Shown: positions 5,380 to 9,655 of the stretch, one piece after another
How positions within the stretch are numbered: the stretch's first letter is position 1
How the letters are laid out: every line of letters starts with the position of its first letter
Source: Roseburia intestinalis L1-82
GTDB lineage: Bacteria > Bacillota > Clostridia > Lachnospirales > Lachnospiraceae
Direction of reading: 5' to 3'
Assembly: GCF_900537995.1 (NCBI RefSeq)
Contig: NZ_LR027880.1
Location: 3,418,001-3,482,000 of the forward strand
DNA: 64,000 nt
The notes under the pieces: model-generated
Databases searched by the model: none
What the model was told of the DNA's origin: nothing
Seen by the model: the letters and a program-made list of their open reading frames with translations, nothing else
Position numbers and translations under genes: made by a program

Positions 5380-5499
5380 AAAATCCTCCTTGTTTTCCGA
5401 AGGAAAATGCGAGCCCTTTGGCGAGCAGAGGATTTTCCTCCTTGTTTTGCGAAGCAAAATCCGAGTCCCTTGACGATGAGAGGATTTTCCTCCTTGTTA
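5380..5499 (-). repeat. tandem leader repeat carrying Shine-Dalgarno sites (padR)
   Basis: Two full units (5449-5499, 51 bp; 5397-5448, 52 bp) and a 17-bp partial unit (5380-5396) lie between the promoter and the padR ATG. On the minus strand each unit begins ACAAGGAGG followed by AAAATCCTC, a small self-complementary arm, and ends with a TTTTGC-TTC-GCAAAA-type hairpin. The partial unit supplies the actual padR ribosome site. The same module precedes proC at 32972-33113. Confidence 0.8.
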
Positions 5500-5697: not shown

Positions 5698-5731
5698 CCT
5701 GATGTCTGTCTGACATTTAAAAATCATTCTT

Positions 5732-5809
5732 TTATTTTTCTGCAAGATTTTCGAGGATTACATCCATATCATACCCCGGTACCACCTTCATTACAGCTTC
5801 AAATGCTTT
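5732..5809 (-). pseudogene. 3' remnant of an unidentified gene
   Basis: About 25 in-frame codons ending in TAA (5734-5732) encode a protein-like tail, AFEAVMKVVPGYDMDVILEN and then LAEK. Two stop codons lie in frame immediately upstream (about 5811-5816), and the tail is followed at normal distance by a terminator at 5661-5697. It looks like the C-terminus of a lost gene; the family is not recognised. Confidence 0.35.
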
Positions 5810-6011
5810 TCTTTATTATATAGAACCCCAAAAACATCTTCAAGTCATTCCTACATATTTTTGTTTTGTGAAACTTGCTGCTGATGTGGCATAGAATTAC
5901 TGAGTTGTCAGAACTATTTTTATAGTATACTACAAGAAGCCGCATTATTCAATCACAAAATAAAAGGAACTCTGCTATCCGGTTAAATGCTGATTTGTTT
6001 ATGAAATAAAT

Positions 6012-6373
6012 CGCCCGCTCAAATGGTGTGTCGCAGGTCTGTGAGTGGCATCTTGCGCAAAGCCGGAGTTAATTTTGGTTCCATTGTACGAAAATAAGAA
6101 AAGTCTAAGTGTGTCTGAGTTAGATTTTCTCGGAGTGACGTGACCGGCGTTCAACGAGCCATCCGTGGCTCGTGAAGCCTTGTTCTGCCATCCGTGGCAG
6201 AACATCACTGTGTATCTACAGACACACAATCTCAATCTGACCATTATCAGATTGAGATAGATTTTCTAATTTTCTCCCAAAGTCACAAAATCAGCTCAGG
6301 CTTTGCGCAAGATGCCAGCCTCCAGATTATGAACACCATTTGGGTGGGCGGTTCATCTCAAAATTGGGGGCGT
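6012..6373 (-). repeat. palindromic structured element, copy A (inverted relative to copy B)
   Basis: An imperfect inverted repeat. Outer stem 6047-6064 / 6299-6316 (GGCATCTTGCGCAAAGCC and its exact complement, 18 bp); inner stem 6109-6117 / 6219-6227 (GTGTGTCTG/CAGACACAC); two internal hairpins at 6154-6173 (ACGAGCCA...TGGCTCGT) and 6181-6204 (TGTTCTGCC...GGCAGAACA), both with the loop core TCCG. A further hairpin CTCAATCTGA...TCAGATTGAG follows. The right end carries TTGGGGGCGTA. No gene is visible inside. It aligns end to end with the reverse complement of copy B at 6678-7020. Confidence 0.75.
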
Positions 6374-6677
6374 AGGTGTGGATTTTTGATATTCGCACGA
6401 ATGAAAATATGCTTAAAATCCTAATATGCTGTATCATTAATATTCAGCCTGATGACTTTCCAAAATTTCCATCTGCTACATTGTACTACATGAATTGTTT
6501 CGTAAATTGTCAGACCAATAACACAAAATATTCTTCAAATGTGTATGGCAATAAATATGGGCATAGTGGTATATATCGAGGTTTTTGCCAGTGTTGTCAA
6601 ACAAATAATAAACCATTGAATATAGTTATTTGGAAATCTTTTTTTAATCAGATTCAGACACAAAACACTAAAAATTT
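6374..6677. other. AT-rich spacer between the two palindromic elements
   Basis: About 300 bp between facing TTGGGGGCGTA / TACGCCCCCAA ends. Open frames exist but have no ribosome site, no recognisable domain, and run into the repeat elements. I see no supportable gene here. Confidence 0.5.
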
Positions 6678-7020
6678 ACGCCCCCAAGGTTGTAAAATGA
6701 GTTCCCACGCGAAGGGTGGTTCACAACCTTGCGGCTGGCAAATCGCATCAAGCCGGGATCCGTTTTGTGACTTTGGGAGAAAATTAGAAAGTCTTTGTAT
6801 GCCTGTTCACAATACAGTGTTGTGCTGCCACGGACGGCAGCACAAGTCTTAATGTGCCCGGATGGCACATTTAAGACGCACACGTCACTCCGCCACAATA
6901 TAAATCAGGCATACTTAGACTTTCTTATTTTCGTACAACGGAACAAAACGAGTCCCGGCTTGATGCAATTTGCCAATCGTAACCCCCCAGAACCACCCTA
7001 CACAAGGAAACTCATGTCAC
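6678..7020 (+). repeat. palindromic structured element, copy B
   Basis: Same architecture as copy A but opposite orientation. Outer stem 6737-6758 / 6953-6974 (22 bp, one mismatch), stem 6780-6794 / 6917-6931, stem 6797-6805 / 6906-6914 (GTATGCCTG/CAGGCATAC), hairpin 6821-6844 (TGTGCTGCC...GGCAGCACA) and hairpin 6851-6871 (AATGTGCC...GGCACATT), again with loop core CGGA. Stem sequences differ from copy A but pairing is kept by paired changes. Unpaired blocks such as GACTTTGGGAGAAAATTAG and CTTATTTTCGTACAA are conserved between copies. Confidence 0.75.
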
Positions 7021-7060
7021 CCGCAAACCAATATTTATCAGATAACGCGTTCTATAAAGC

Positions 7061-7101
7061 AAAAAAGGAACCACAAAACCATTCTAAGTTTTGCGGTTCC
7101 C
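7061..7101 (-). terminator. glgP terminator
   Basis: On the minus strand GGAACCGCAAAAC (7100-7088) pairs with GTTTTGTGGTTCC (7079-7067), with a single G-U, and is followed by TTTTTT. It lies about 130 bp after the glycogen phosphorylase stop codon. Confidence 0.85.
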
Positions 7102-7181
7102 AATTAGGAAGAATTTGTAATTTAAATATTGTGAATTAACTGCTGCTCTGCAAGCCACATAATCGCTTACAAGATTTTACA

Positions 7182-7236
7182 AGACGCATGGCACCTTACG
7201 AGATGCATGGCATCTTACAGATGCATGGCATCTTAC
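7182..7236. repeat. 18-bp tandem repeat over the glgP stop codon
   Basis: AGATGCATGGCATCTTAC occurs at 7201-7218 and again at 7219-7236, preceded by a diverged copy at 7182-7200. The copy at 7219-7236 includes the glgP stop codon (7235-7233) and the repeats extend into the 3' untranslated region. On the minus strand each unit can form GGCATCT-gta-AGATGCC. Confidence 0.8.
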
Positions 7237-9485
7237 AGATGCCAGATATCCTCATTGTACTGTGCAATGGTACGGTCTGATGAGAAGAATCCTGCCTTGC
7301 TGATGTTGACAAGCATTTTCTTAGCCCATGCCATACGGTCTTCGTAATCTGCGTAGATACGTTCTTTGGTTGCAACGTACTCCTCGAAATCCGGGAGAGT
7401 CATGAACCAGTCTTTGTTTAACAGCTCGTTGTAAAGACGCTCTAAGTTCTCTGCACATCCAACTGCTTTCATCTGGTCGCTTACGATAAAGTCGATCGCA
7501 CGTTTGATGTTTGCATCATTCTCGTAGTAGCTTCTGGAAACGTAATCTGCTTTCTCGTAGTGTTTGATAACTTCCTCAGAAGACTCACCGAAGATATAAA
7601 TGTTATCATCGCCAACGAACTGATGCATCTCAACATTTGCTCCGTCCATGGTTCCGATTGCAACGGCACCGTTTAACATGAATTTCATGTTGGATGTTCC
7701 ACTTGCCTCTTTGGAAGCTAAGGAGATCTGCTCATGGATATCTGCTGCCGGGATCAGTTTCTCAGCTAATGTTACGTTGTAGTTTTCTACCATTACTACT
7801 TTTAAGTATGGTGCGACTTCCGGATCATTTGCGATCAGTTCCTGTAAGCAGAGGATCAGATGAATGATGTCCTTTGCAATGATATATGCCGGAGCAGCTT
7901 TTGCACCAAAAATAACGGTGATCGGACGTGCCGGTTTCTTTCCTGCTTTGATCTCGAAATATTTGTGGATCACATAGAGAGCATTCATCTGCTGTCTCTT
8001 GTACTCGTGTAATCTCTTGATCTGGATATCGTAGATGGAGTTGTCATCTAACTCGATGCCCTGTGTTTTTACAAGATAATTCTTTAACTCTGTCTTTCTT
8101 GTACCTTTTACTGCAAGAAGTTTCTTTAATACTTCCTCATCATTTACATATGCGCCGAGTTTCTCTAACTCTTCTGCGTTTTTCTTAAATCCAGGTCCGA
8201 TTAAGGATGTGATAAATTCGGTCATCTCCGGATCACAGTGTAATAACCAGCGGCGGAATGTGATACCGTTTGTCTTATTATTAAACTTCTCCGGATAAAT
8301 CCTGTAGAAGTTATTTAACTCTGTATTCTTTAAAATCTCTGTGTGCAGGTAAGCAACACCGTTGACACTGTATCCGTAATGAATATCCATATGTGCCATA
8401 TGAACGCGTTTCTCATCATCAATGATTGCTACGGATCTGTCATCATATTTCTTTGTCACACGGCTGTTTAACTCATAAATAATCGGCAGTAACTGTGGAA
8501 CAGCTTTCTCTAAGAAATGGATCGGCCATTTTTCAAGTGCTTCGGCTAAGATCGTGTGGTTTGTGTAAGCACAGGTCTTAGATACAATGTCGATCGCCTC
8601 ATCCATTAAGATGCCGCGCTCCATCAACAGACGGATCATTTCCGGAATCACCATACTTGGGTGTGTATCGTTGATCTGGATCACTGCATACTCGTTTAAT
8701 TTGTGAAGATCTCCGCCTCTTGCAAGTGTCTCATCAATAATCAGGCGCGCTGCATTGCTGACCATGAAGTACTGCTGGTATACACGAAGGATTCTTCCCT
8801 TATCATCGGAATCATCCGGATATAAGAATAATGTTAAATTCTTTGCAATATCCTCTTTGTCAAAATCGATGCCCTCACCAACTAAACTCTCATCTACTGT
8901 TTCAACATCGAACAGATGAAGTTTTGTGGTACGATTCTCATAACCAATCACATCGATATCATATAATCTGGACTGTAACGTAAAACCGCCGAACTGAATC
9001 GGGTAAGTAACGTCTGTTTTTGTCAGCCAGCTTTCTTTTTCGATCCATGGATTTGGTGTCTCATTCTGCAGGTTATTTTTGAATACCTGTTTGAACAATC
9101 CGTAATGGTAATTTAAACCAACACCGTCACCGTTTAAACCAAGGCTTGCGATAGAATCAAGGAAGCATGCTGCAAGACGTCCAAGTCCGCCGTTTCCTAA
9201 TGACGGCTCCGGCTCAACCTCCTCGATCTCTGCAAGGCTCTTGCCGTTGTCTGCTAAAAGTTTTTTCACATCCTCATAGATGCCAAGGTTGATCAGGTTG
9301 TTGGATAATAATTTACCGATCAGGAACTCAGCGGAAATGTAATATAATTTACGTTTTCCCTGATTGCTGACTTTTTCTTCTGCCATTCCTTTTGTCATCT
9401 CAAGCAGTGCATAGTAAAGTTCCTCATTTGTGCACTGTGAAATCTCTTTGCCACATCTGTTTGCTACGATTTCCTGTAATTTCAT
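7233..9485 (-). CDS. glgP: glycogen/starch/alpha-glucan phosphorylase
   Basis: 750 residues from the ATG at 9485, chosen because GGAGG lies 5-6 nt upstream; the frame is open further upstream but without a better site. Family knowledge: a PLP-dependent GT35 enzyme releasing glucose-1-phosphate from alpha-1,4-glucans in the cytosol. Seen: N-terminal [44 protein letters not shown] active-site region (INDTHP), [12 protein letters not shown], and the PLP-lysine motif [14 protein letters not shown] followed by GTMDGANVE. Length is typical for Firmicutes. It is monocistronic with its own terminator; an AraC gene diverges from it. Confidence 0.95.
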
Positions 9486-9655
9486 GTTTTCCTCCATGTT
9501 CCGCGCCCCCGGCGCTGTTTTCATTATGTTCCCCAACCAATGTTTATGCATGTTCCTGTTGTCCTGATTTCGCTTTTTTTCGCAAAATCATTGTTTATGA
9601 TGTTATTATAGTTTCTGCAATCACTTTTTTCTTGTAATATTGACTCAAAAAGTGG

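What the first reader, a model, noticed from the sequence alone, without database searches (positions are those of the whole stretch)
6012..7020. Two inverted copies of a palindromic element whose stems covary
Copies A (6012-6373) and B (6678-7020) share order, size and unpaired blocks, yet stem sequences differ by paired changes. Hairpin TGTTCTGCC/GGCAGAACA in A is TGTGCTGCC/GGCAGCACA in B; ACGAGCC/GGCTCGT becomes ATGTGCC/GGCACAT; GTGTGTCTG/CAGACACAC becomes GTATGCCTG/CAGGCATAC; the outer stem GGCATCTTGCGCAAAGCC is replaced by a different but equally paired 22-bp stem. Loops keep a CGGA core. Pairing is being maintained while sequence drifts, which points to a folded RNA or single-stranded DNA with a function. 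It could be an undescribed structured RNA family or a non-autonomous mobile element that moves as a hairpin. I recognise no known family.
Basis: partly seen in the sequence, partly recalled or inferred. Interest (0 to 1): 0.78.

Follow-up and report, generated by a model that had tools for sequence, protein, structure and literature searches.

The report
Jumping-gene hairpins carrying a CsrA-type RNA
The two folded repeats are copies of a catalogued bacterial RNA of unknown job (TwoAYGGAY); this genome holds 24 of them, many related copies are packaged as small jumping elements that seem to borrow another element's enzyme, and their RNA part looks like bait for the regulator protein CsrA.

Summary
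Both copies are Rfam RF01731 (TwoAYGGAY): window 6083-6246(-), 101 bits; 6772-6939(+), 133 bits. Rfam files it in the clan of CsrB, and CsrA binding was proposed in print (PMC4333381, passages). New here: (1) RF01731 is a dispersed repeat: 24 copies in this genome, 28 of 116 genomes positive, own included. (2) 9 of 12 solo copies here, and many elsewhere, are ~315-bp foldbacks whose ends match those of IS1182-like transposase elements, with 7-bp target duplications (40 of 95 end-bounded elements at >=6/7, null 2.8%): MITEs. (3) Loops keep GGA while stems covary; csrA is present in 49 of 51 positive against 236 of 347 negative genomes. (4) In 3 of 10 orthologous insertions the core is inverted. 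The window pair is a 1,052-bp composite, one of six, with different ends and no target duplication found. Transcription and CsrA binding are inferred.

The parts
5985..7036 (.). composite unit: copy A (-), ~300-bp spacer, copy B (+); inverted end repeats AAATGCTGATTTGT / GCAAACCAATATTT
   Evidence: six such units aligned; ends found at these six units plus one weaker place in the genome; boundaries
5999..6363 (-). copy A, full foldback including outer stem
   Evidence: inverted repeats I5 and I7
6083..6246 (-). copy A, TwoAYGGAY core RF01731, 101.1 bits
   Evidence: cmscan
6181..6204 (-). copy A hairpin 1, loop ACGGAT (CsrA-type)
   Evidence: sequence, model alignment
6154..6173 (-). copy A hairpin 2, loop ACGGAT (CsrA-type)
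   Evidence: sequence, model alignment
6229..6258 (.). extra hairpin inserted in one arm of copy A, absent from the other five A copies
6375..6676 (.). spacer of the composite, alignable over most of its length in 5 of 6 units, largely deleted in the sixth; no Pfam family above cut-off in the one frame searched
6692..7020 (+). copy B, full foldback including outer stem
   Evidence: inverted repeats I1 and I8
6772..6939 (+). copy B, TwoAYGGAY core RF01731, 133.2 bits
   Evidence: cmscan
6820..6845 (+). copy B hairpin 1, loop ACGGAC (CsrA-type)
   Evidence: sequence, model alignment
6851..6871 (+). copy B hairpin 2, loop CGGAT (CsrA-type)
   Evidence: sequence, model alignment
7233..9551 (-). 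neighbour: glycogen phosphorylase (glgP), whose 3' end faces the element
   Evidence: ORF, PF00343 E 1.7e-264

Best explanation
The two repeats are TwoAYGGAY (RF01731) elements. The family spreads as ~315-bp MITEs: foldback DNA whose terminal repeats match those of IS1182-like insertion sequences, cut and joined by that transposase acting in trans and leaving 7-bp target duplications (shared ends and duplications are shown; the act of transposition is inferred). The conserved cargo between the ends is an RNA with two hairpins whose loops C-A-N-GGA-N-G resemble the CsrA recognition motif. Most likely the copies are transcribed and bind CsrA, acting together as a dispersed CsrA decoy like CsrB (inferred). 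The window pair is a composite of two such elements pointing outward from a shared spacer; that unit is present six times in this genome, and how it was copied is not resolved.
For: The 18-bp end GATT[AC]GGGTGTCAAAAGG bounds TwoAYGGAY foldbacks (18 of 18 named ~300-bp elements given to Rfam, of 22 such, are RF01731 at 86-138 bits) and lies beside an IS1182-like transposase (L287, 472 aa, NF033551 E 2.8e-26; eight more loci show the same IS left end as far as the contig reaches). A complete IS in G020 (L333) has ends GATGTTGGGGTCAAAAGG/C and target duplication TTGGAAT: over about the first 14 bases the second end type of this genome's solo copies. Element interiors do not match the IS apart from the ends and one 23-base match at E 0.005. 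Target duplications: 26 of 95 elements 7/7 and 40 of 95 >=6/7, null 0.54% and 2.8%. GGA in both loops in 38 of 43 chosen cores with covarying stems. Clan shared with CsrB. csrA in 49 of 51 RF01731-positive against 236 of 347 negative genomes, p = 4e-6. Mismatches in the basal stem of the core favour G-U over A-C, 81 to 42 (copies taken as independent).
Against: No expression or binding data. The genome itself has no hit to the L287 transposase (9 of 116 genomes hit, own not), so its copies may be immobile now. The three transposases tested score below the NCBIfam IS1182 cut-off (92.5, 90.6 and 101.1 bits against 270), so 'IS1182-like' is the safe wording. No complete IS with the GATT-type end was seen: L287 lacks a right end. 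The composite of the window lacks these ends and target duplications; 3 of 12 solo copies here and 87 of 124 collected copies in all did not pass the two-ended TIR test, the sampled G016 copies among them, which have other ends. csrA association: weaker among relatives (27 of 28 against 71 of 88, p = 0.07); genomes are not independent; 17 of the 51 positives are below Rfam's cut-off; the scans scored few candidates per genome, so some negatives may be missed. Outer-arm mismatches do not favour G-U (389 to 543).
Confidence: 0.62

Rival explanations
1. Purely selfish foldback MITE: palindrome and loops are kept by DNA-level processes (template switching, arm-to-arm recombination, a need of the transposase), with no RNA function.
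For: Arms seem to recombine as DNA: the core is inverted between unchanged flanks in 3 of 10 orthologous G014/G016 insertions. Outer-arm mismatches show no G-U preference. Short 54-161-bp foldbacks with the same ends, of which six loci gave no RF01731 hit, also show 7-bp duplications.
Against: The most constant columns include the unpaired GGA of both loops, which a palindrome process does not explain; basal-stem mismatches prefer G-U (81 to 42) and recent changes lean the same way (19 to 8, p = 0.05); in orthologs single changes (51) outnumber changes on both sides (7 Watson-Crick to Watson-Crick, 5 other), unlike concerted template switching; csrA association.
Confidence: 0.22
2. Cis-regulatory RNA of neighbouring genes (Rfam's type label).
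For: Rfam type Cis-reg; no called ORF spans any of the 24 cores (crude ORF call); a divergent pair sits by glgP in three genomes.
Against: Neighbour orientation is mixed; 3 of 10 orthologs are inverted; glgP proximity in only 3 of 19 close glgP orthologs with a 1,500-base 3' flank, two of them from close genomes; Weinberg et al. 2010 list it as 'n' for cis-reg (PMC2864571, passage).
Confidence: 0.08
3. The composite is a pair of divergent sRNA genes sharing a central promoter, kept for function rather than moved as a unit.
For: All six pairs here and five further close pairs seen in four other genomes (G004 twice, G014, G016, G051; the listings are capped) have the (-,+) outward order; the region 5700-7250 has an excess of promoter-like sites, four of the ten inside the spacer.
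Against: Six near-copies with common ends in different places argue for copying of the unit; one unit lost most of the spacer; the promoter-like excess is modest (10 against 4.4 +/- 1.9).
Confidence: 0.15
4. Single-strand hairpin transposition, IS200/IS605-like.
For: No target duplication was found on the composite, which has strong hairpins.
Against: Elements with recognisable ends have 7-bp duplications, and those ends are shared with transposases that match DUF772/IS1182 models.
Confidence: 0.04

Closest known systems
TwoAYGGAY RNA (Rfam RF01731)
   Same: Window copies are members: 101 and 133 bits, cut-off 43.
   Different: Rfam covers only the 168-nt core; the element goes on into a long outer stem and, in many copies, terminal repeats. 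I found no statement of its mobility in the passages read.
CsrB/CsrC/RsmYZ-type CsrA-sequestering RNAs
   Same: GGA-in-loop hairpins; same Rfam clan CL00106 as CsrB; CsrA binding by TwoAYGGAY already proposed in PMC4333381 (passages).
   Different: Two sites per RNA but up to 24 dispersed copies counted in one genome, many with transposable ends; no expression shown.
MITEs of IS1182-like elements
   Same: Terminal repeats shared with transposase-bearing elements, 7-bp target duplications, no transposase of their own.
   Different: Interior is a conserved, covarying RNA, not an internally deleted IS: apart from the ends only one 23-base match at E 0.005 between 124 elements and three IS stretches.
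Other bacterial foldback repeats with RNA roles (Correia/NEMIS, ERIC, RUP, BOX; recalled, not tested)
   Same: Short dispersed palindromes, some cross-mobilised by IS transposases.
   Different: I recall none with paired CsrA-type loops.

Membership tests
TwoAYGGAY RF01731 | covariance-model score above 43 bits | tested here: met
   133.2 and 101.1 bits
TwoAYGGAY RF01731 | two hairpins with AYGGAY-type loops | tested here: met
   copy A twice ACGGAT, copy B ACGGAC and shortened CGGAT
MITE of an IS1182-like element (solo copies) | terminal repeats shared with a transposase-bearing element | tested here: met
   9 of 12 solo copies of this genome have one of two end types, matched to IS loci L287 and L333; the other 3 do not
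MITE of an IS1182-like element (solo copies) | target duplication of constant length | tested here: met
   40 of 95 elements with >=6/7 against 2.8% null; of the 9 solo copies here 3 are 7/7
MITE of an IS1182-like element (window composite) | IS1182-type ends and target duplication | tested here: not met
   ends AAATGMTGGTTTGT; no perfect direct repeat of 4-10 bases within about 3 bases of the ends at any of the six units
IS1182 family transposase (helper) | NCBIfam equivalog score above 270 bits | tested here: not met
   92.5, 90.6 and 101.1 bits; best-scoring family but below cut-off
CsrA-sequestering RNA | GGA exposed in hairpin loops, more than one site | tested here: met
   both loops GGA in 38 of 43 chosen cores
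CsrA-sequestering RNA | csrA in the host | tested here: met
   two csrA matches in this genome; 49 of 51 positives in the phylum sample
CsrA-sequestering RNA | transcribed and bound by CsrA | not testable with these tools
   needs RNA-seq and CLIP or gel shift
Cis-regulatory element | fixed orientation to a conserved downstream gene | tested here: not met
   mixed neighbours, 3 of 10 orthologs inverted, glgP 3 of 19 with flank
IS200/IS605-type hairpin element | no target duplication | tested here: not met
   elements with recognisable ends duplicate 7 bp; for the composite no duplication was found

The most novel reading that the evidence does not exclude
CsrA control in gut Lachnospiraceae is tuned by a transposon-borne RNA: MITEs spread dozens of CsrA-binding decoys over genomes and a plasmid, the decoys flip in place by recombination between their arms, and copy number sets the level of free CsrA, making a global regulator's titration a mobile and evolvable trait.
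Probability: 0.3. Interest if true: 0.85.

Novelty: new variant of a known kind. Interest (0 to 1): 0.6.

Why it matters
TwoAYGGAY has been an RNA family of unknown function since 2010. Showing that it is the cargo of IS1182-like MITEs explains its multi-copy, patchy spread, extends the element beyond the Rfam model, and turns the CsrA proposal into something testable in culturable gut bacteria. It would join transposable elements with a global post-transcriptional regulator; apart from the TwoAYGGAY proposal itself, the listings and abstracts I saw show no CsrB-like RNA described in Clostridia.

Tried and rejected
Pristine empty sites: flanks of 11 of the 21 sampled G016 copies were searched in G014; three sites looked uninterrupted or nearly so, but on inspection they keep arm or end remnants, so they are internal deletions, not empty sites. 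A script looking for two GGA hairpins by regular expression missed all 92 end hits of 80 named loci, and I first read those elements as lacking the loops; the covariance model then found RF01731 in 18 of 18 of the ~300-bp ones given. A second hairpin parser was also crude (both loops in 87 of 124 and 6 of 25); I rely on the alignment columns instead. Quasi-palindrome correction as the cause of covariation: tested by G-U against A-C and by ortholog changes, mixed result, not adopted as main cause. Seven further weak, one-sided inverted flank matches between genomes (68-85% alike) were not counted as orthologs. Autonomous version of the composite: its ends occur, among 116 genomes, in this one and once, singly, in G042. 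Phages: no match to one solo copy (L001); plasmids: one record, 4 places. Spacer frame: no Pfam family above cut-off. MIR5998 in the low-threshold Rfam scan is far below its cut-off and rejected.

Full report
What is there. The window holds two divergent foldbacks. Both cores match Rfam RF01731 TwoAYGGAY well above its cut-off of 43 bits: 6083-6246 on the minus strand (101.1 bits) and 6772-6939 on the plus strand (133.2 bits).

The pair is a unit. The genome (G000, 4,493,348 bases in one contig) holds 24 RF01731 matches; 12 form six pairs, each minus then plus, with starts 463-689 bases apart. The six pairs align over both copies, and the spacer over most of its length in five of six. Their common ends AAATGMTGGTTTGT occur at those six units, with one weaker extra hit. 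Units are 824-1,052 bp and show no perfect direct repeat of 4-10 bases within about 3 bases of the ends. The A copy of the window has an extra hairpin at 6229-6258 that the other five lack.

The family is a dispersed repeat. RF01731 is found in 28 of 116 genomes (own included), 27 of them with a match over the cut-off, and with many copies in several; that scan scored at most 21 candidates per genome with strict filters, so counts are lower bounds, and the own genome gave 21 instead of 24. In a sample of 398 genomes of the phylum, at most 6 candidates scored in each, 51 are positive, 34 of them over Rfam's cut-off. Four places lie on a 242,774-bp plasmid of Roseburia sp. 831b, whose length equals contig C2 of G054. 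Phage records gave no match to the one solo copy used as query.

Many solo copies are MITEs. Of the 12 solo copies of G000, 9 have terminal repeats of one of two kinds, GATT[AC]GGGTGTCAAAAGG or GATGTTGGGGGCAAATAG-like; the other 3 do not. Of the 58 elements in these stretches with a partner end within 430 bases, 22 are 295-315 bp long; 18 of the 22 were given to Rfam and all 18 hold an RF01731 match. Shorter foldbacks with the same ends also exist; the loci of six of them gave no RF01731 hit. Pooling these 58 with the 37 of 124 collected RF01731 copies that have recognisable ends on both sides, 26 of 95 have identical 7-bp flanks and 40 of 95 at least 6 of 7, against 0.54% and 2.8% when flanks are dealt out at random; among the 37 alone it is 6 and 7.

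A helper exists. Locus L287 has the first end type, then a 472-aa transposase (DUF772, best NCBIfam model IS1182 at 92.5 bits, cut-off 270). Its right end was not found. Locus L333 of G020 is complete: GATGTTGGGGTCAAAAGG at one end, GATGTTGGGGTCAAAAGC at the other, target duplication TTGGAAT, a 541-residue open frame, best model IS1182 at 101.1 bits. G045 carries another (L332) whose contig stops at the right end. So both end types of the solo copies have a transposase-bearing counterpart. Apart from the ends, 124 elements and three IS stretches share only one 23-base match at E 0.005. The genome of the window has no hit to the L287 protein; 9 of the 116 genomes do.

The core looks like a CsrA target. 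In 43 cores that I chose from this genome and others, GGA is intact in loop 1 in 40, loop 2 in 41 and both in 38, while 22 of 23 stem pairs show changes on both sides; the covariation score is 0.709 against 0.192 shuffled and at most 0.159 slid. Rfam places RF01731 in clan CL00106, the clan reported for E. coli CsrB. The CsrA idea is not mine: PMC4333381 proposed it from motif matches (passages). The new test is co-occurrence: csrA is present in 49 of 51 RF01731-positive and 236 of 347 negative genomes (p = 4e-6). The two exceptions are G296 (94% complete) and G350 (75% complete, marginal hit). In the set of 116 it is 27 of 28 against 71 of 88 (p = 0.07), because csrA is common there. Shared ancestry is not corrected for.

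RNA or DNA? If pairing is selected as RNA, G-U mismatches should exceed A-C. In the basal stem of the core (its outer 48 bases on each side) they do (81 to 42, p = 6e-4 if copies are taken as independent); in the outer arms they do not (389 to 543, with large differences between genomes and much of it probably inherited). Changes between orthologous G014 and G016 copies, arms and basal stem together, lean to G-U (19 to 8, p = 0.05). In those orthologs single changes (51) outnumber changes on both sides (7 Watson-Crick to Watson-Crick, four of them in one copy, and 5 other). I read this as RNA selection on the core, with the arms undecided.

In-place inversion. Ten G014/G016 insertions are orthologous by flanks: seven in the same orientation (flanks matched on both sides for three and on one side for four), three with the core inverted between flanks that match at 97.6-99.0% on both sides, the cores being about 99% identical. 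G014 is a draft, so misassembly at the arms is possible. If real, the arms recombine, and function cannot depend on orientation to neighbours.

Position. No called ORF spans any of the 24 cores (crude). A divergent pair next to the 3' end of glgP occurs in G000, G014 and G016, 3 of 19 close glgP orthologs with a full 1,500-base 3' flank (22 orthologs, three cut short by contig ends). Given CsrA's role in glycogen metabolism in E. coli (recalled) this is worth noting, but it may be one old insertion.

Literature. 'TwoAYGGAY' is in 7 held papers (5 listed) and 'RF01731' in 4. Passages were read in PMC2864571, PMC11701678, PMC4333381, PMC7657543 and PMC11661157; none of these passages mentions copy number, transposition or inversion. 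Searches for IS1182 with MITE, Roseburia palindromic repeats (no paper) and CsrA with mobile elements listed nothing on this; I saw listings and starts of abstracts only. Most subscription papers are not held.

Names. That G000 is Roseburia intestinalis and G016 Agathobacter rectalis is recalled from genome size, not from a call. The CsrA loop consensus is recalled, apart from the match stated in PMC4333381.

Noticed in passing
window 5384-5487: Two tandem 52-bp repeats (85% alike) upstream of the PadR-like gene, containing a GAGGATTTTCCTCCTTGTTTT motif that also flanks the RF01731 copy in L005; perhaps another dispersed repeat family.
   Followed up: no
window 7182-7236: Three copies of an 18-bp repeat AGATGCATGGCATCTTAC (one at 89%) between the element and glgP.
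   Followed up: no
window 7066-7101 (-): Terminator-like hairpin with a T run just beyond the 3' end of glgP.
   Followed up: no
L028, L031, L037 (own genome): Short ~45-50-bp hairpins with the same terminal repeats but no core, likely internal-deletion products of the MITE.
   Followed up: partly
L249, L271, L279, L322 (named Lachnospiraceae/Clostridiaceae contigs): Foldbacks of 129-160 bp with the IS1182-type ends and 7-bp duplications (L249, L271 and L322 exact, L279 6 of 7); the two read (L249, L279) share a non-RF01731 interior.
   Followed up: partly
L103 left flank (G016): Tandem short hairpin repeats CACAGCAAGACGTAAGCACCGGCCACCGGTGCGCACACGTCACCCCA beside an RF01731 copy.
   Followed up: no
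G000:C1:172594-172737: A second, divergent csrA-like gene (57 bits) besides the canonical one; similar extra matches in a number of relatives.
   Followed up: no
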